The position numbers and the translations under genes were made by a program. From Argopecten irradians (lineage: Eukaryota; Mollusca; Bivalvia; Pectinida; Pectinidae): a stretch of 64,000 nt of DNA. Location: contig NC_091138.1 in assembly GCF_041381155.1 (NCBI RefSeq), forward strand, positions 34,465,604 through 34,529,603, written 5' to 3'. Below the pieces are notes generated by a model, which saw only the letters and a list, made by a program, of their open reading frames with translations, had not been told where the DNA came from and searched no databases. Positions 1,436 to 55,164 of this stretch are shown one piece after another. The first letter of the stretch is position 1. The number at the start of each line of letters is the position of its first letter.

Positions 1436-2030
1436 ATGAGCTGAATTTTGAAAGGTGTTGATTCCAGGCTGTGTTCAGAAAAGGTTTGAATGAGTTCAGA
1501 TTTTTGGCAGTAACCACCGTTGCTGATAGACTGTTCCAGTTATCTGTGACACGGTTTGACAACGAATTTTACGCAGCTTGGCTCTGAACCTCTTTTTGTA
1601 TAGTTTACTTCCATACCCTCTAGTAGTTTGGTCGTTCTATTTAAACATGATAGTGAATTTATCTGATGTAGTGTCCCAAGGCTTTTAAGGCATTCTTCAT
1701 AGGTCTTATCTGTTAGTTCAGGCACTAGTCTTGTGGCGCAGCGTTCTTGTTATCAAGGGTAATTCTGTGTTTCTTGAAGAACCAGACTGAAGCACAGTAT
1801 TCCAGATGTTGTCTTACCAGGGATTTGTACAAATTTTGAAAGATGTTCTTATCCATATAGAGGAAGGTTTTAAAAATGATGTTTGCTTTCTTCACCTGTA
1901 TCTTGACATGCTCTTGTAAATTTCCAACTTGTCATCAAAGTTCACACTCAGGTTTACTTTCTGGAGTGTTGTCTCACTGCTTCCTGGGATTGAGTAGAGA
2001 TGATCAGGTGTTTTATTTCTACAATGGCGT
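1436..2030 (-). mobile_element. LINE fragment, C-terminal reverse-transcriptase region (CR1/Jockey-like)
   Basis: Read on the minus strand from about 2030 down to 1436, successive frames give the usual order of the end of a non-LTR retrotransposon ORF2: a 'VNFDDKLE' block, 'HVKIQVKKANIIFKTF', 'LYKSLVRQHLEYCASVW', 'RCATRLVPELTDKTYEE', then 'NRVTDNWNSLS.TVVTAKNLNSFK'. These blocks are typical of the thumb and C terminus of CR1/Jockey/L2-type reverse transcriptases. The blocks lie in different frames and stops occur between them, so it is a dead 5'-truncated copy, the common fate of LINE insertions. I cannot place it in a clade from the tail alone. Confidence 0.8.
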
Positions 2031-8517: not shown

Positions 8518-11500
8518 TCACGCTCGTGAATCTAAAGGGAGTTTTCTCACTAGATCCTCTAGGGCCTTATCTCCTGTTGATTCTGCCTTCCTTTTTACCA
8601 AAGCATAACATCGCACCTGTAAACAGACAGCAGGCTTGACTGTAGATCATTTGATTCTGATAAGCAACACATTATCTTACCTAGATGGACACATATGTAC
8701 CAAAGTTGAAGTACCAGTGCTTTATAATATAGGAGATATAGCCTGAATAAGCTTTTCTAAAATGGAGGTCAAAGGTCAAAATATAGGTTACCTTGACCTG
8801 GTTTAGGTGGCTCAGTTTTGATATCTGAAACACGATACTTTTAAGTTAACACTTGAAAAGTTAAAATCTGTTTTCAGGAAGTTAAGTGACATGTTTATAT
8901 GTAAAGCTGTTTTTTAATCATTTTTATGTAAGAAAGCTGCCTTACCATTTGTTTAGTATCATTCTGGCCATGTTTCTGAGCCAGATTCCACAGGTTGGTT
9001 GCTAAGGTAAACGACTGTTGGTGAGACATATCACCATGACAAATCAGAGTATTGAAGAGTTCCAAAGCAAGAAAACTTTGTCTCTTGAACGACTGAAACA
9101 AAGAAATCCGAGAATTACACTTTTGATTGATAGAAAGACTTTTTACATACATGCTGAAGATTCATAACATGTCAATTGCAAAAAAACGTCTCTAAGTCAT
9201 TAATACTTCACCTCCATTTGAAATTGTGATTGCACACGGCACTACTGGATACAAATAACTGTATGATGTAGCAGGGCATAAAAATCTTATACTTATTAAT
9301 AAATGTACATGTGTAATTCTATATTCAGACTATTTTTATATTCCACTTCTCAGAATTCAATCGATTAAAAATCCTTTAAAATATAGATGACTTACCTCTG
9401 GAGTAGCTAGTGTTTTTAAGTGGTTGAGAATTTCCTCGAGTAATGTCGAACACATAGAGTTGACCTCTGCTAGATACTTGGGGTCAGATCCATACATGGC
9501 GTCATTCGCATCAACTGCAGGAAAAAAAACACCATTCTTAAAACAGACATTTATAAAATACTGGCTACAAAAAATTTTGGAAAGGGGGTATAGACTGCCC
9601 AGCTTTCAACATTACAGGATGAAGAAAGATATTTCCTCAATAACAGTTGATTTTCATTCTTAAGTATGTACATGAATTTGGGTTCATGATCACATCACTT
9701 CAACCTCTTCAATATCTAGAAGGTGAAATATAAATGCTGTGTCCAACCTGCCATCTTAACCACTCAGCCACCCTGGCACCAGAGCCACTGCAGAAGTTTG
9801 CAAAGAAGACTTCATGGGGCCTTGTGGTCAAATGGTACATTCTACCATAATACTTCAGAGTTCTAAATGCATGTAGGGTAGTTGTCGGGTTCTAACCATG
9901 AATATGAGTTTTCTTTTGGGTATCTCCAAAACTTTGTATATGATCAAATTACCCTGACTATTTAAAAAATAACATGACATTAAACAAGTTGAACTTCATC
10001 AAAGGCCTGAACAAAACCGATCTATTCAATATGATCAAGATAATCTAATATTGTGACAAACCTTTATCTACATGGTATAGGTAGACCTCCTGACTGGTAG
10101 CTGACAACATGGCCAGGACTCGGGTGTAGACTTGGACCTTGGTGTCCTGATTCTGTTCCCAGGTGTAGTTCTGTAGGATGTTCAGGAGACCACGCAACAG
10201 GTAAAGCACACCGGCGTCGGGGTTATCCTGTAAATATTGCATTACAGAAATATGTTAAATTATATCAATAATTAAAGTCTACAGCCATCCTGTAAATACT
10301 ACACCATTGTCTGGGTTATCTTGTCAACAACACTCATGTATGTATGTTAGTCTGTAAGTAAATATAAGTTTAGTATTTAAAATGTATATTTCTCACAAAT
10401 GCACTCAAACACCAAGTACTGAAGTCTTTAAACCAATTCATCTTATCTATGTTACCTTCCTGCACCGACTAGCAAGCACATCATAATGATTGACAAAAGT
10501 TGCTAAAAATAGTAACAATGACCTTTAACTTGACCTGTAACCCCGGTTAGTACTTACTGGAACTGCTAGCAGTGTGGACAGGAAGTTATAGATAAACTCA
10601 ACCAGGAATGGCTCTGATGACCTTGCTTTTCCATCAAGGTCAAGGTTTTTCGGTACCTCAGGAATTAAGGAAATCGCAGCCTTCAAACATGAATCCGCTG
10701 TAACATCAAAAAAGAAAATATTCTATTAGGAAAATAATGTACATATAAATGGATATCAATAATTTCTCAAATCACATTCAACTTTTATTCCTTTTTTTAT
10801 TCAAAATCTTAAATAAAGATTTTGAAATAGGAGTGTATCTGTAAAATGGCATATGTATTTCTAACTTTTTAGTGGTTTTTATATCTAGAAACTTCAAATT
10901 CTTTATAACACGCTATAGAGGATAAGATCATTCAGATTGACTTTGAATTGTATGTGGGATACAAACAATTACTTGTCACCATTCTTGGCCCCATAGGCTG
11001 TCAGAATTTTGTGACATCATCTGAAACCAGGGAAGATAACTACTACTAACCTTGGTTGTAACACTGGTTCTGTAGCGCCACCTGACCCGACAGGAAGGGA
11101 AACCAGGGGAGATAACTACTACTAACCTTGACTGTAACACTGGTTCTGTAGTGCCACCTGGCCCAGCAGGAGGGGAAAACCAGGGAAGATAACTACTACT
11201 AACCTTGACTGTAACACTGGTTCTGTAGTGCCACCTGGCCTGGTAGGAGGGGAAACCAGGGAAGATAACTACTACTAACCTTGACTGTAACACTGGTTCT
11301 GTAGTGCCACCTGGCCCAGCAGGAGGGGGAAACCAGGGAAGATAACTACTACTTACCTTGGCTGTAACACTGGTTCTGTAGTGCCACCTGGCCCAGCAAG
11401 AGGGGAAACCAGGGAAGATAACTACTACTAACCTTGACTGTAACACTGGTTCTGTAGTGCCACCTGGCCCAGCAGGAGGGGAAACCAGGGAAGATAACTA

Positions 11501-14500
11501 CTACTAACCTTGACTGTAACACTGGTTCTGCAGCGCCACCTGGCCCAGCAGCAGGGGAAACCAGGGAAGATAACTACTACTAGCCTTCACTGTAACACTG
11601 GATCTGTAGCGCCACCTGGCCTGGCAGGAGGGGAAACCAGGGAAGATAACTACTACTAACCTTGAATGTAACACTGGTTCTGCAGTGCCACCTGGCCTGG
11701 CAGGAGGGGAAACCAGGGAAGATAACTACTACTAACCTTGACTGTAACACTGGTTCTGTAGTGCCACCTGGCCTGGCAGGAGGGGAAACCAGGGAAGATA
11801 ACTACTACTAACCTTGACTGTAACACTGGTTCTGTAGTGCCACCTGGCCTGGCAGGAGGGGAAACCAGGGAAGATAACTACTACTAACCTTGAATGTAAC
11901 ACTGGTTCTGCAGTGCCACCTGGCCTGGCAGGAGGGGAAACCAGGGAAGATAACTACTACTAACCTTGACTGTAACACTGGTTCTGTAGTGCCACCTGGC
12001 CCAGCAGGAGGGGAAACCAGGGAAGATAACTACTACTAACCTTGACTGTAACACTGGTTCTGTAGTGCCACCTGGCCTGGCAGGAGGGGAAACCAGGGGA
12101 GGTAACTACTACTAACCTTGAATGTAACACTGGTTCTGCAGTGCCACCTGGCCTGGCAGGAGGGGAAACCAGGGAAGATAACTACTACTAACCTTGACTG
12201 TAACACTGGTTCTGTAGTGCCACCTGGCCTGGCAGGAGGGGGAAACCAGGGAAGATAACTACTACTAACCTTGACTGTAACACTGGTTCTGTAGTGCCAC
12301 CTGGCCCAGCAGGAGGGGGAAACCAGGGAAGATAACTACTACTAACCTTGACTGTAACACTGGTTCTGTAGTGCCACCTGGCCCAGCAGGAGGGGAAACC
12401 AGGGGAGATAACTCTTATTAGCTTAGACTGTAACACTGGTTCTGTAGCGCTACCTGGCCCAGCAGGAGGGGAAACCAGGGAAGATAACTACTACTACTAG
12501 CTTTGACTGTAACACTGGTTCTGCAGTGCCACCTGGCCTGGCAGGAGGGGAAACCAGGGGAGATAACTACTAACAACTACTACTTACCTTGGCTGTAACA
12601 CTGGTCCTGCAGCGCCACCTGGCTCGTCAGGAGGGGAAACCAGGGGAGGTAACTACTAATAACTACTACTAACCTTGGCTGTAACACTGATTCTGCAGTG
12701 CCACTTGACCCGACAGGAGATACAGATGAAGTTGGGACATTGTAGACTGTAGAGTTGGAATCGTGATGAAGCAGTACGCTGCACAGGCCTGAATACAAAA
12801 TCTCAAATTAGTCACAATGATGTCCAAATAGCCTGTCAACTATCATTCATCTTTTTTATCACCTCTTCATGTATTGTATATAAACTTAAATGTTTACTGT
12901 TATTCAATATTAGGTAGAATTTCTGCAATTAAGCTTTTATTCTAGAGATTATTAATTCATTACTTCCAAAAAAAATTTATTTATTCATTTGGTCATTTGA
13001 AAATAATAGTAAGCTTGATGTAAATGCGGTCCAATGTCCCAGCAAGTAATATTACACTTACAGATTGATGAGGATGCAATTAAAACAAGAAATATAAGTT
13101 CTCCCTATATTCTACTAGGAAAATTTCTGAATTGGGAACAAAATTTGAAATTGAAAATATTTTGCAATATCTACTCAATAGCATAAAGTTAGTTTAATAA
13201 ATCTACATATACAAGCACAGATGTGAAAGCTTACCCTAACAAAGTTGCCTGTCTTCCTTGAATGGTTTCCTTTTACGACTTTCCTTGTTTCTATGGCCAA
13301 ATTGTTTACATTCTGAAAACACAGAATATTTACCCATCAAATAAAATGTATTTCAATTTTTATCAATCAATGAAATTACTAATATGTAATCCTTAAAGGG
13401 ACAATTCAGTCTGGCTAATTCTGTTACATAACCACAAAGCAAAATATGACATACCAGGTAAATGTATTGTTCTATTTTCGTATGAAACATATAACAAGAA
13501 ACATTGACAAATTCCACGTTAAGTATTTTGATTGATACCGTTGAAAATCCATATTATTGATCAATACGATTAAGCAGGTATAACATGTATGCTGTACCCA
13601 TACCCGAGTAAAAGTCATGTACGTTGATCAAATGCAGTAAATAACCACTGAAGAGTTGGTGAAATTATATTTAGACAAGGATGTGATCTAATAAGGTAAA
13701 CACATTACTGTAAGAGCGATTTGAGTAGTTCTAAACAAAAATTTCTTAACTACACTGACAAGGGCCATGGTTTGGCATACAACACATCCGACCACAATGT
13801 GTAATGGTGGCAAGTAAGCATTGAAGCAATTGTGAACATTTCACATAAATTCCAATACAGTGGGCTTTTCTGGCATATCACAGTAAAACCAATTAACCTA
13901 ATCTCCATTGGAACTAGTTTGTTTCTGATATATATGCAAATTTTAACATACTCTTAGACTGAATTGTCCCTTTACAGCCCTGCTACCCCAACTGAGAACG
14001 ACGCGTGTATATAAACCCCTACTGCTCTAACGCTGACTTGTATCGATGTATTGAATGAGTGTACTGTAGCCGTGTTATTTATAGACTCGGGTACTGTTGC
14101 CAAATCCACAGGTAAATTGGTACTGGATGCTACGCTCCGGCCTCTCATCCAGCTTAATGAAACTGAATGGCTAGTAAGCTTAACCGATCTATATATCATC
14201 AACAATGCGTCTGTATCTACTTAAAAACAAAACAAATATTTTTCAAATTGCATCAACATTCACTTGAATAGTATTTCTTTATTTTAAATATTTTGACAAT
14301 TCTTCATACTTCTAGTAAAATTGCATATGAAACTCCTTATAGATCTAGCGATGCTCATTACGTAGGGAACCACCATACCATGTCCCAGCTGCAGGCCGTG
14401 TGCAAAAAGTCAAAAAACACAAGGGATTTATAAGATGAGTCCTAAACTCTCCTATATTTAGGATTTTCAATAAGTGGTTTGTAATATTATTACAGCAAAA

Positions 14501-30147: not shown

Positions 30148-30343
30148 AAAGATTCAGATCAAGGATATTTATCCTACAGACTAACTCAGCTGACAGGATT
30201 CATTAATTGTTCCATGAGAGATAATTGTATATCTTTCATCCAATTAGTGTTATTAGTAGTTTTCTTTTATTTTGATAACATTTTGTGTATTTTGATAGTA
30301 TTTTGTATATTTTTGATACAAGGAGATTTACTTGAACATTCAA

Positions 30344-30880
30344 ATGTCGGACATTAAAAATTGTGATGTGCAGAAGCACCCCATATTTCACAAAGATCCG
30401 GAGCAATGGATGCAATACATAAACAAAGAGGTATTGGTTGTCACAGACGATGGCTCTGAATGGACAGGCTGGGTGTACACCATTGACCCGGTCTCGGATA
30501 GTATTGTTCTGTTTGTATTTGAAGAGGACGAGACCAAAATGGAGATAGTGATGGGCCATGCCGTCAGAAATATTTCCGTTCTCAACAGCGAGACACAGAC
30601 CCACAAAGCTAAGTTTGACCAGCTTTTCAAAACAAGAGAACAGCAAAGTTTCTCTGAGGAGGAGCTAGAAAGACGAAGGCATGTTTTGAAATTGTGGTTT
30701 GTGAAGAATCTCCTCCCCGTGAGTACTACAGGGGATAATGGAGAAATTCTGTCTATATCTGATGCGGTGTATATAGAGGCGCCGTACGGACCTGACAACT
30801 GTCGTAGTACTAACGAAATCATCCTGGGTAGGATTCAGGGACTCATTAAGAACATGCCAGCAGATCACGAAAGCTGGTGA
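30344..30880 (+). CDS. GEMIN6: GEMIN6, SMN-complex protein (single exon)
   Basis: An intact 178-aa frame. Residues about 15-90 form the Sm-like fold: 'DPEQWMQYINKEVLV', 'GWVYTIDPVSDSIVLF', 'MGHAVRNI', matching human GEMIN6 ('LEWQDYIYKEVRV', 'GWVLTTDPVSANIVL', 'IMGHAVQ'). The C-terminal part carries 'PYGPDNCRSTNEIILGRIQ', near-identical to human 'PYGPENCSSSNEIILSRVQ'. GEMIN6 pairs with GEMIN7 within the SMN complex, which loads Sm rings on spliceosomal snRNAs. The ATG at 30344 is chosen because the in-frame codons upstream begin with TTG, not ATG. The whole frame lies in one exon. It starts 196 bp after MED9 on the same strand and ends 523 bp from the RAD54B stop codon on the other strand. Confidence 0.95.
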   Translation: MSDIKNCDVQKHPIFHKDPEQWMQYINKEVLVVTDDGSEWTGWVYTIDPVSDSIVLFVFEEDETKMEIVMGHAVRNISVLNSETQTHKAKFDQLFKTREQQSFSEEELERRRHVLKLWFVKNLLPVSTTGDNGEILSISDAVYIEAPYGPDNCRSTNEIILGRIQGLIKNMPADHESW

Positions 30881-49433: not shown

Positions 49434-50494
49434 CAGGGGCGTGTAGGAAGCGGGGGGCAGGGGGGCCAACTGCCCCCCCGTTCCCCAGGACGGGGGGGCA
49501 AACATGTCTTTTTGCCCCCCCATTTTTCGCCGACTAAAATTTTCTAAAAAAATGCTTATTAGAAAGAAAAAAGTGGGTCCTCCTGCACATTTTTTCGTAC
49601 TTCATTCTAGAAAATTTTTCCGCTACGCGGCGCATTTCCTAAAATGATTTCAAGCACATAATGTCAATACAATACACACAAACTAGACTAAAAATGTCCA
49701 TAAAAAAGATTCTATGTACTATTTAAAAAAAATGTCTCTTAAAAGATCAATTTGTTTATGTCTTAGCGAGACAATTAATTTTTTTTTTATGTTACACAAC
49801 AATTGTGCCGATGGTGTGAAGCTGGTATATTTCAGATCGAGTAGGGTTGCATAATGTTATGACGACACAATTATCATTTCTAAATGCAGGTAGCTTTAAA
49901 TCGAAAAATTACCATGTTAAGAACGCTTTATAATCATTAAACTTTATCGTAAAACTCATCTCAGCCATTCTAAATCGTAATTTTTTTCCGGGGGGAGACC
50001 CCCGGACCCCCCCCCTAACACCAAATTCTCGCGCCTTTGGGCGCTCGCAAATTCATCAAATGCATCGTAAAACTCATCTAAGCCATTCTAAATCGTAATT
50101 TTTTTTCCCGGGGGAGACCCCGGACCCCCCAAACACCAAAATCTCTCGCGCTTCCGGGCGATCGCAAAATCATCAAAATACATAAAACTCATCCCGGGGG
50201 TCACCCTCAGACACCTTATAAAACACCAAAATCTCGCGCCTTCGACGCTCACACGCTAATTTGGCCAATTTGCGTATTCGTTAATTTCCTTTTACCGACC
50301 TCACTGCCTATAAATGTGTACAAGGATTTAATTTAGTGATATATGAAAAATGTACATTAAGCATGTATACATTATATGGTTGGGAGTTGAATTAATCTCC
50401 TCCTGTAGGTGTGGCGGGGGGTGGGGAGTGGTTGGGTTTACAAAATATTGAGGACCTTTGTCCCCCCATGACGTTTCATCTTCCTACGCCACTG
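49434..50494 (+). mobile_element. Non-autonomous hAT-like element, copy 1
   Basis: Ends 'caggggcgtgtaggaag' and 'cttcctacgccactg' are near-inverse complements (consensus CAGTGGCGTAGGAAG). The 5-bp sequence ATTGT directly flanks both ends (49429-49433, 50495-50499). G/C runs ('ggggggcagggggg', 'cccggaccccc') and the phrase 'aaactcatct.agccattcta'+'aatcgtaattttttt' appear up to three times in tandem at 49955-50250. The interior shares 'cgaaaaattaccatg.taaga' and other blocks with the element at 54143-55259, which carries a transposase remnant. No coding part remains here. Confidence 0.8.
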
Positions 50495-51675: not shown

Positions 51676-52875
51676 TTATCGATTCATGCCAATGTATTAT
51701 CATTCTGAGATCTGATTATATCATTCATGCCAATGTATTATCATTCTGAGGGATTCGATTATATCATTCATGCCAATGTATTATTATTCTGAGATTCGAT
51801 TATATCATGCATGCCAATGTATCATCATTCTGAGATATGATTATATCATTCATGCCCATGTGTTATCATTCTGAGATTCGATTATATCATTCATGCCAAT
51901 GTATTATCATTCTGAGATTCGATTATATCATTCATGCCAATGTATCATCATTCTGAGATATGATTATTCATTTATCATTCATGCCATGTATTATCATTCT
52001 GAGATTCGATTATATCATTCATTTGCCAATGTATTATCATTCTGAGATTCGATTATATCATTCATGCCAATGTATCATCATTCTGAGATATGATTTATAT
52101 CATTCATGCCCATGTATTATCATTCTGAGATTCGATTATATCATTCATGCCAAAGTAATATCATTCTGAGATTCGATTATATCATTCATGCCAAAGTAAT
52201 ATCATTCTGAGATTCGATTATATCATTCATGCCAATGTATCATCATTCTGAGATATGATTATATCATTCATGTCCATGTATTATCACTCTGAGATTCGAT
52301 TATATCATTCATGCCAATGTATTGTCATTCTGAGATTCGATTATATCATTCATGTCCATGTATTATCATTCTGAGATTCGATTATATCATTCATGCCAAT
52401 GTATTGTCATTCTGAGATTCGATTATATCATTCATGCCAATGTCTTATGATTCTGAAATTCGATTATATCATTCATGCCAATGTATCATCATTCTGAGAT
52501 ATGTGATTATATAATTCATGCCCATGTATTATCATTCTGAGATTCGATTATATCATTCATGCCAATGTATCATTCATTCTGAGATATGATTATATAATTC
52601 ATGCCCATGTATTATCATTCTGAGATTCGATTTATATCATTCATGCCAATGTATTGTCATTCTGAGATATGATTATATCATTCATGTCCATGTATTATCA
52701 TTCTGAGATTCGATTATATCATTCATGCCAATGTATTGTCATTCTGAGATTCGATTATATCATTCATGTCCATGTATTATCATTCTGAGATTCGATTATA
52801 TCATTCATGCCAATGTATTATGATTCTGAAATTCGCTTATATCATCCATGTCATTGTATTATCATTCTGATATTC
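51676..52875. repeat. 41-bp satellite, about 29 units
   Basis: The unit, 'atcattcatgccaatgtatt' + 'atcattctgagattcgattat', repeats about 29 times. Variants are ordered: a unit with 'tatcatc...gagatatg' is in every case (7 of 7) followed by a unit with 'ccatgtattatc' in place of 'caatgtattatc', and the early part runs as a B-C-A trimer. This is a higher-order arrangement produced by multi-unit duplication. Non-coding; a frame through it is incidental. Confidence 0.93.
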
Positions 52876-52879
52876 GATA

Positions 52880-54137
52880 ATATGTTAGTATGTGTGGGGG
52901 AGCTCATGAGAGCATTGCGTTTTATTTACCACATTAAAACGATTGTGCCCTAAATGTTAATTTCCGCCGAGTGAGCTGAAAGGACAATAAACTACCGACC
53001 TATCATTTACATCTATTTTAAGAATTCGAAACCAGCTTATCATGAAACTTGCAACATGACAATCAACAAAATACATTTACGAAAAACACACCCCTCGCGT
53101 TTCGTTATAATGGTGCCTTACGGTAAAAAAGTAAAACAAATAAAATTCTGGGAACGGCGGAGCCAAAGAAGTATTTAAAATTTTTAACAAAATGATAACA
53201 GCATGAACATGCGTGTTCGCGTGATTCTCTACTCGTAAAAGCTTAAAAGAATTTTTATCCTGGGGTGATCACGTGGTTATTTTACTCTCAAATTTGTTTG
53301 TATTAATGGACTTTGGCACTTGGCTTTTGTCAACATACAGATTACGTAACCAATTAAGGACACGTTATCAATCCTGTGAAAGATTATAATAACAAAAAAT
53401 CGTAGTTTCCTTATCAAACACTCATGCTTCCGTATGAAGACTCGCACACATTTTGCAATATACGCATGCGCTTCATTTCAATCTGATTAAAATCCATATC
53501 TCCAATACGCTTACCCAAACGCTTCATAGCTACGTGCATCGTAAGCGTATTGAAGATATAGACTGTAATCAGTTTACGCTTTATCGGTAACAAAAATACT
53601 TCAATCGACCAAATATTTTGGAAAATTCCTGATTTATATGTCTTTTTCTTTCATTATTAGCTTACAGTTAAACCTCGTTTATTCGTAATTCTCTAATAAG
53701 TGGACCGTTTTCTTTTTAGTGGAACTATCTTGTGTATGGTTTATAGATACAGGCTGTGTTTTGTGTTGTCTTGTCCGCTGTCCGGGTATTCACAATAATA
53801 TTGGCATTAGTATTAAGATGAAGCTTACAGAAATCGGCTGATAAAAGTGAACTAACAAACAGGTGTCGATTCTTATGAGCAATAAGGCCCGAATCATAAC
53901 AATTACAGTCACCACATTCAAGTTTCATTTAAAAAAAAACCCACGTATTTCATTTCTCTTTCAAAACAATTTGGGGGACAAAATGTATAATTGTATATAT
54001 TAATCTGGTTGCAACGACCACATAGGTTTTTTTTTCCCCGTATAAATTTTCATAATCAAATTATTTGTGTTACAATACCCTTACTCGTAGGGGCGGGCGC
54101 TGAACTTGAGGTCAAAATTGAGAAGGTGCCACTGGAG
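52880..54137. other. Intergenic DNA with one hairpin
   Basis: A 90-bp foldback at 53483-53572 has arms 'ctgatta...ccatatctccaatacgcttac' and 'gtaagcgtattgaagatata...taatcag'. The remainder is AT-rich and no gene is recognised. Confidence 0.5.

Positions 54138-55123: not shown

Positions 55124-55164
<41 letters not shown>

What the first reader, a model, noticed from the sequence alone, without database searches (positions are those of the whole stretch)
11023..12788. Minisatellite made from a coding exon's 3' end plus its own splice donor
Seen: 21 tandem 77-bp copies, each pairing about 42 nt of VPS35L exon 21 with about 35 nt of the following intron, directly after the real exon. Most copies keep a GT donor, two have an even better donor (gtaagt) than the real one, and each has a pyrimidine run ending in AG. 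Inference: the spliceosome faces about 20 decoy donors and possible 31-nt microexons (which would shift frame), so either the first donor dominates or VPS35L mRNA varies. Length changes in the array could tune VPS35L expression between individuals. I know of no described case of this exact kind.
Basis: partly seen in the sequence, partly recalled or inferred. Interest (0 to 1): 0.85.

Follow-up and report, generated by a model that had tools for sequence, protein, structure and literature searches.

The report
Exon-end repeat array with decoy donors
In one animal gene (VPS35L) the end of a coding exon and its splice signal have been copied 21 times into the next intron, giving many look-alike splice sites, most of which are predicted to be hidden by RNA folding; a human gene with a comparable repeat is already known.

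Summary
On the minus strand, the last 46 nt of a VPS35L exon plus about 30 nt of the following intron recur as 21 head-to-tail copies, filling 1623 of the intron's 1976 nt. Of 21 copies 18 keep a GT donor, two of them GTAAGT; by sequence these 18 equal or beat the genuine donor.

The interpretation changes in three ways. The frame-shifting 31-nt microexon has a poor acceptor in 20 of 21 copies; a better AG, in 10 copies, gives a 36-nt in-frame microexon repeating the exon's last 12 residues, but branch-point motifs are nearly absent. Any array donor used as an alternative 5' splice site gives a stop one codon past the exon. After predicted RNA folding, 12 of the 18 GT donors bind U1 worse than every genuine donor examined; the nearest copy's GTAAGT, 86 nt downstream, stays open and is the likeliest competitor.

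Donor columns are no better conserved than the rest, so selection is not shown. Precedents exist: the human IFI6 minisatellite and repeats at exon-intron boundaries. No transcripts or relatives could be examined. Best reading: a passively expanded minisatellite that normal splicing mostly ignores.

The parts
12674..12788 (-).
   Evidence: Protein match to human VPS35L 703-740; boundaries by reading-frame continuity with flanking AG/GT
10698..12673 (-). Following intron, 1976 nt, of which 1623 nt are the 21 array units
12668..12676 (-). Genuine donor AAG|GTTAGT; in the exon's frame the intron reads on as GGT TAG TAG TAG
11051..12673 (-). Array of 21 copies (u1 nearest the exon, u21 most distal), each about 30 nt of intron start plus 46 nt of exon end; 18 of 21 followed by a GT donor
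12582..12673 (-). Copy u1 (86 bp, 12588-12673) and its strong donor AAG|GTAAGT (GTAAGT at 12582-12587); predicted main competitor, would make a 201-nt exon with an immediate stop
   Evidence: U1 duplex -12.2 against -8.3 for the genuine donor; net after opening cost -6.9 against -2.9; frame
12347..12587 (-). Copies u2-u4; u2 and u3 have lost the donor (GC); u4 keeps GT
11661..12346 (-). Homogenised core u5-u13, with the most deeply buried donors and a roughly 228-bp higher-order pattern (u7, u10, u13 share a variant)
   Evidence: Within u5-u13, identity is highest at lag 6 (0.983) and lag 3 (0.974); opening costs
11051..11660 (-). Distal copies u14-u21; u14 GC donor, u17 GTAAGT, u21 the copy most like the exon (5 of 43 differences)
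11023..11050 (-). Partial 28-nt unit at the distal end, continuing into unique intron sequence (AGATGATG); probably the ancestral intron start
10558..10697 (-). Next VPS35L exon, 140 nt, in frame with the genuine donor (SQ-ADSCLK)

Best explanation
A 76-bp segment crossing the exon's 3' end and the intron's 5' start was tandemly duplicated and then expanded inside the intron by slippage or unequal exchange (the anatomy is shown; the process is inferred). The array is mainly a passenger. The genuine donor, as the first donor after the exon, defines it in most transcripts, because exon definition favours a near donor (recalled) and because most array donors are predicted to lie in hairpins made with exon-derived stretches of the same and the next copy (predicted, not shown). 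Leakage should go mainly to copy u1, whose GTAAGT is stronger and open. That yields a 201-nt exon with a stop one codon past the normal end, so nonsense-mediated decay or a protein cut near the position of human residue 740 (inferred).
For: 21 copies in an intron directly behind the source exon; found at no other place in the genome. The copies nearest the exon are the most diverged and the core is homogenised, with a 3-unit pattern, as expected of a slipping minisatellite. Donor columns are no more conserved than others (P 0.53), and 3 of 21 GT are lost. Cost of opening the donor 9-mer, context 70/120: median 8.5 kcal/mol for the 18 array GT donors, 5.4 for the genuine one, median 3.9 for 11 other genuine donors, median 4.2 for 120 of 803 background GTs, of which 0.8% reach the array median. 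The array median is also highest in the two other contexts (6.9 and 7.9), where 10.8% and 2.5% of the background reach it. Net U1 binding is worse than the weakest genuine donor (-0.6) in 12 of 18 array GT donors (u4-u13, u18, u19). All 21 alternative 5' splice sites give a stop after 39 residues from the exon start.
Against: No transcript evidence was available. Six of 18 array GT donors (u1, u15, u16, u17, u20, u21) have net U1 binding within the genuine range, and u1, u17, u20 and u21 match or beat the genuine donor, so masking is incomplete. A simpler measure, mean unpaired probability of the donor 9-mer, did not separate array (0.21-0.62) from genuine donors (0.17-0.89; 0.37 for the genuine one here). 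Genuine donors can cost as much to open (7.2 and, in another context, 8.9). The hairpin has no compensatory change (0 of 17 pairs). In constructs CTG-type copies do not exceed random recodings (P 0.56), while CCA-type ones do (0 of 500). A passive array with a stronger open donor 86 nt away should be costly, which could argue for a tolerated or regulated role.
Confidence: 0.6

Rival explanations
1. Regulated poison switch: the array donors, above all u1, compete with the genuine donor, and the immediate in-frame stop turns donor choice into an on/off control of VPS35L mRNA whose strength varies with array length.
For: The u1 donor is stronger by sequence and by net U1 binding; all 21 alternative donors lead to a stop one codon past the exon.
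Against: Donor columns are not conserved above the rest; u2 and u3 have lost GT; no length-variation or expression data.
Confidence: 0.17
2. In-frame cassette source: 36-nt microexons from copies with CCTGCCAG (or CCTACCAG) add the 12 residues [12 protein letters not shown] in frame, giving VPS35L isoforms with a repeated segment.
For: 10 of 21 copies have this AG (scores 3.9-5.7, within the genuine range of -1.9 to 10.4), 8 with a GT donor; all 10 stay open through the next exon. Pyrimidine content upstream 0.75, against 0.35-0.70 for genuine acceptors.
Against: The score is not distinctive: the 90th and 95th percentiles of 752 other AGs in the gene are 4.4 and 6.4. An AG only 5 nt before the donor scores about as well in most copies. 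A yTNAy motif at 15-45 nt is present in 1 of 21 copies against 9 of 12 genuine acceptors (my count), and that copy (u4) lacks this AG. Core donors are predicted buried. Introns between neighbouring copies would be 40-50 nt, short for animals (recalled), though single inclusion from the genuine donor is not barred by length.
Confidence: 0.08
3. U1 landing pad: 18 U1-complementary sites in 1.6 kb recruit U1 to protect the transcript from premature polyadenylation or to slow splicing, without being used as donors.
For: 18 array GT donors score at or above the genuine donor by weight matrix, against 1 of 820 other GTs in the gene.
Against: By U1 pairing alone 1.6% of the 820 do as well. Net U1 binding is unfavourable or near zero for u4-u14. 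An intron of about 350 nt without the array would need little such protection.
Confidence: 0.05
4. Assembly artefact: the array was created or its copy number mis-set by the assembler.
For: Raw reads could not be examined; one assembly only.
Against: Copies differ from each other (mean pairwise identity 0.90) with an ordered variant pattern, and the 1.6-kb array lies in a contig longer than 34 Mb.
Confidence: 0.04
5. Hairpin-driven expansion: complementary stretches within each unit form hairpins in single-stranded DNA, so foldable copies multiplied for replication reasons, with RNA masking as a by-product.
For: Array sequence folds better than the exon's own end in the same setting, as RNA (-26.9 CCA type, -23.3 CTG type, -17.9 exon) and as DNA (-8.3, -7.7, -4.9 on the sense strand; -8.1, -8.4, -4.8 on the other). 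The seven array-exon differences of each type jointly stabilise the RNA more than random sets of seven transitions (P 0.0007 and 0.018).
Against: Put singly into the exon end, 5 of 8 changes stabilise and 3 destabilise. DNA energies are weak; the test was made after seeing the fold; the direction of the changes is unknown. Compatible with the best explanation, not exclusive of it.
Confidence: 0.06

Closest known systems
Human IFI6 (6-16, G1P3) minisatellite (Turri, Cuin and Porter 1995, Nucleic Acids Res 23:1854)
   Same: A minisatellite that, by its title, provides multiple splice donor sites (seen in reference lists); PMC4526556 states that two downstream repeat units used as donors enable three mRNA species (passage). 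That it adjoins an exon's 3' end is recalled.
   Different: IFI6 units are 12 nt and in frame (recalled; paper not held). Here the unit is 76 bp, holds 46 nt of coding exon, has acceptor-like AGs, and any array donor runs into a stop at once. Donor use is reported for IFI6 and not shown here.
Variable internal tandem repeats at exon-intron boundaries of human genes in segmental duplications (PMC2812944)
   Same: Minisatellites at exon-intron boundaries that change splicing; 27 intron modifications reported (passages).
   Different: Variable repeats there average 30-bp units repeated 4 times, between recent paralogues, with transcript support. This is a longer array in a gene with no paralogue found.
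Intron gain by tandem duplication across a splice boundary (potato RdRp gene, PMC4974935)
   Same: Tandem duplication of a segment crossing an intron-exon boundary that brings ready-made splice signals (abstract).
   Different: The potato case copies an acceptor boundary and makes a new spliced intron; here a donor boundary is copied 21 times inside an existing intron, with no new intron shown.

Membership tests
IFI6-type donor minisatellite | Minisatellite directly behind an exon with a donor in most units (exon position recalled for IFI6) | tested here: met
   21 copies behind exon 12674-12788, 18 with GT donor
IFI6-type donor minisatellite | Several of the donors are used in mRNA | not testable with these tools
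   No transcript data held
IFI6-type donor minisatellite | Repeat use keeps the reading frame (recalled for IFI6) | tested here: not met
   All 21 alternative donors lead to a stop one codon past the exon
Tandem repeats at exon-intron boundaries | Minisatellite at an exon-intron boundary | tested here: met
   Unit is 46 nt exon end plus about 30 nt intron start, contiguous with the genuine exon
Tandem repeats at exon-intron boundaries | Copy number differs between paralogues or individuals | not testable with these tools
   No paralogue found (7 of 7 matches lie at this locus); one assembly only
Intron gain by tandem duplication | Duplicated segment carries splice signals of the parent boundary | tested here: met
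   Donor copied with GT in 18 of 21
Intron gain by tandem duplication | A new intron is spliced out within the duplication | not testable with these tools
   No transcript data; introns between neighbouring copies would be only 40-55 nt

The most novel reading that the evidence does not exclude
A self-masking splice-site array: copies of an exon end have diverged so that exon-derived sequence folds over the neighbouring donors, silencing decoys that are by sequence as good as or better than the real one, while one unmasked copy (u1) acts as a poison donor and array length sets VPS35L output.
Probability: 0.1. Interest if true: 0.75.

Novelty: new variant of a known kind. Interest (0 to 1): 0.42.

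Why it matters
The locus is a natural experiment on how a cell picks one donor when 18 equal or better copies lie directly downstream, each with copied exon context. It would make the relative roles of proximity, exon definition and RNA structure directly measurable. VPS35L is a subunit of the Retriever/Commander endosomal recycling complex (recalled), so mis-splicing would have consequences.

Tried and rejected
The 31-nt frame-shifting microexon was scored and set aside as unlikely: weak AG in 20 of 21 copies, a stop in all 21. Microexons of 19 and 13 nt also shift frame and stop in every copy; a weak 27-nt AG in u3 stays open. The AG 5 nt before the donor scores well but was left out of the frame table, which took only pieces of 8 nt or more.

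Selection on donors: tested by column variation, not found (P 0.53).

Synonymous bias as a sign of coding constraint: exon against consensus 5 synonymous and 1 non-synonymous; 18 distinct minority changes among copies, 8 and 10, where about 0.26 synonymous is expected. The exon-array differences are all transitions, for which 16 of 42 changes are synonymous, so I claim neither constraint nor an age.

Retrocopy or paralogue showing the spliced form or an empty site: none found (7 matches at E up to 0.1, all at this locus; only the best candidates are scored).

Compensatory changes in the hairpin: 0 of 17 pairs.

Hairpin as a clean divide between genuine and decoy donors: rejected. Ranges overlap, unpaired probability does not separate them, and in constructs the opening cost follows the upstream part more than the downstream one (9.3 to 4.4 against 9.3 to 8.4 on swapping in the exon end). 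The genuine donor costs about the same with the array following (5.4) as with the later intron (6.0).

Local fold strength varied: z from -4.31 to +0.01 over 21 modules. In one search z was -4.39 and -2.05 for two array stretches and +0.58 for the genuine exon end.

Literature: searches (10 of 10 used; two returned nothing). I looked into seven papers and saw the other rows as listings only. One search, the only search naming VPS35L, listed three papers; I saw a passage of one, PMC12923665, on a 783-bp intronic deletion linked to VPS35L splicing in cattle.
Full report
What is there. The window lies in an 846-Mb genome on a contig longer than 34 Mb. On the minus strand is VPS35L: the exon at 12674-12788 aligns over its whole length to human VPS35L 703-740 (E 1.5e-10), and concatenated exon translations from about 24.2 to 8.9 kb align at E 3e-171. 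Directly behind this exon the intron (12673-10698, 1976 nt) holds 21 head-to-tail copies of a unit made of about 30 nt of intron start and the last 46 nt of the exon. Spacing is 76 in 14 of 21 copies, 77 in 4, and 86, 86 and 79 in the three nearest the exon. A partial unit closes the array and runs into unique intron, which probably is the ancestral intron. The array has 52% G+C, against 27% for the rest of the intron. The exon-donor 22-mer was found only here (21 matches: the genuine site and 20 of 21 copies), a two-unit stretch matched only here (13 matches), and no paralogue or retrocopy of the two exons was found.

How it grew. Mean pairwise identity of the copies is 0.90. Copies u1 and u2, next to the exon, fit the consensus worst (0.78, 0.81), while u21 is the copy most like the exon (5 of 43 differences). 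The core u5-u13 is homogenised; within it identity is highest at lags of 6 and 3 units (0.983, 0.974), and u7, u10 and u13 share one variant, so blocks of about 228 bp were probably duplicated. Over the whole array there is no such peak: lag 1 is highest (0.93). That is ordinary minisatellite behaviour.

Donors. I scored donors with a weight matrix from 11 other donors of the same gene, chosen by frame continuity and not from transcripts, and with U1 pairing energy. The genuine AAG|GTTAGT scores 10.95 and -8.3 kcal/mol. Of the 21 copies 16 are identical in the nine scored bases, two (u1, u17) are AAG|GTAAGT at 12.25 and -12.2, and three (u2, u3, u14) have GC. Outside the array 1 of 820 other GTs in the gene reaches the genuine matrix score, and 1.6% reach its U1 energy. 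So the decoys are real by sequence.

Consequences if used. The intron reads on as GGT TAG TAG TAG in the exon's frame, so each of the 21 alternative donors (18 with GT) yields a stop one codon past the exon. In 10 copies a better AG (CCTGCCAG or CCTACCAG, 3.9-5.7) gives 36 nt that read in frame as copies of [12 protein letters not shown], the exon's own end, some with small changes; 8 of the 10 have a GT donor. Against inclusion: such scores fall around the 90th-95th percentile of 752 other AGs; a yTNAy motif 15-45 nt upstream of the AG is present in 1 of 21 copies and 9 of 12 genuine acceptors (my count); neighbouring copies leave 40-55 nt, though a splice from the genuine donor to a farther copy is not limited by length.

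Folding. Two core or distal stretches fold better than shuffles (z -4.39 and -2.05; genuine exon end +0.58), pairing the intron start of a unit with the exon-derived part of the next. By module, z ranges from -4.31 to +0.01. The cost of freeing the donor (context 70/120) is a median 8.5 kcal/mol for the 18 array GT donors, 5.4 for the genuine one, and a median 3.9 for 11 other genuine donors; 0.8% of 120 sampled background GTs reach the array median. In two other contexts the array medians are 6.9 and 7.9 against 3.9 and 4.2, and 10.8% and 2.5% of the background reach them. Adding U1 pairing (70/120), 12 of 18 array GT donors fall below the weakest genuine donor; u1 (-6.9), u17 (-5.7), u21 (-4.8) and u20 (-3.0) match or beat the genuine one (-2.9), and u15 and u16 lie in the genuine range. 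Of the open ones only u1 is near: its exon would be 201 nt, the others 1280 nt or more. Plain unpaired probability did not separate array from genuine donors. The seven differences between array and exon jointly stabilise the fold more than random transition sets (P 0.0007 for CCA-type, 0.018 for CTG-type copies), though singly 3 of 8 destabilise. In donor-opening constructs the CCA type stands out from shuffles, random transitions and random recodings (0 of 300, 0 of 500, 0 of 500), the CTG type only from shuffles (0.047; 0.41 and 0.56 otherwise), and there is no compensatory change. Masking is therefore a fair prediction for the core, weak for the ends, and not proof of selection.

Selection. 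The donor 9-mer varies as much as random columns (sum 9 against mean 9.9, P 0.53), and three GTs are lost. Nothing shows that donors are kept for use.

Known cases. The claim of no described case does not stand. [quoted passage not shown] the paper is not held), and PMC4526556 reports three IFI6 mRNA species from two downstream repeat units used as donors (passage). PMC2812944 reports minisatellites at exon-intron boundaries altering splicing (passages). PMC4974935 reports intron gain from a duplication across a splice boundary (abstract). What differs here is the unit size, the long coding share, the immediate stop, the in-frame 36-nt cassette and the predicted self-masking.

Verdict. A real and neat locus, most likely a passive minisatellite whose main risk is the strong u1 donor. 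It is a new variant of a known kind, and only transcripts can raise it further.

Noticed in passing
30317-30877 (+): Single-exon open reading frame with both Gemin6 domains (Pfam PF06372 and PF20417), an SMN-complex subunit (recalled), near VPS35L.
   Followed up: partly
51677-52883: A second minisatellite, 41-bp unit, 29 copies, A+T-rich; not tested for any link to an exon.
   Followed up: no
49946-50177: 118-bp tandem duplication with a C/G-rich core.
   Followed up: no
55127-55161: Uninterrupted run of 35 G.
   Followed up: no
1725-1931 (-): Open frame resembling the end of a non-LTR retrotransposon reverse transcriptase (LVRQHLEYCASVWF; motif recalled, not searched).
   Followed up: no
11661-12192 (-): Higher-order pattern in the array: u7, u10 and u13 share the same variant bases, so 3-unit blocks were probably duplicated.
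   Followed up: yes
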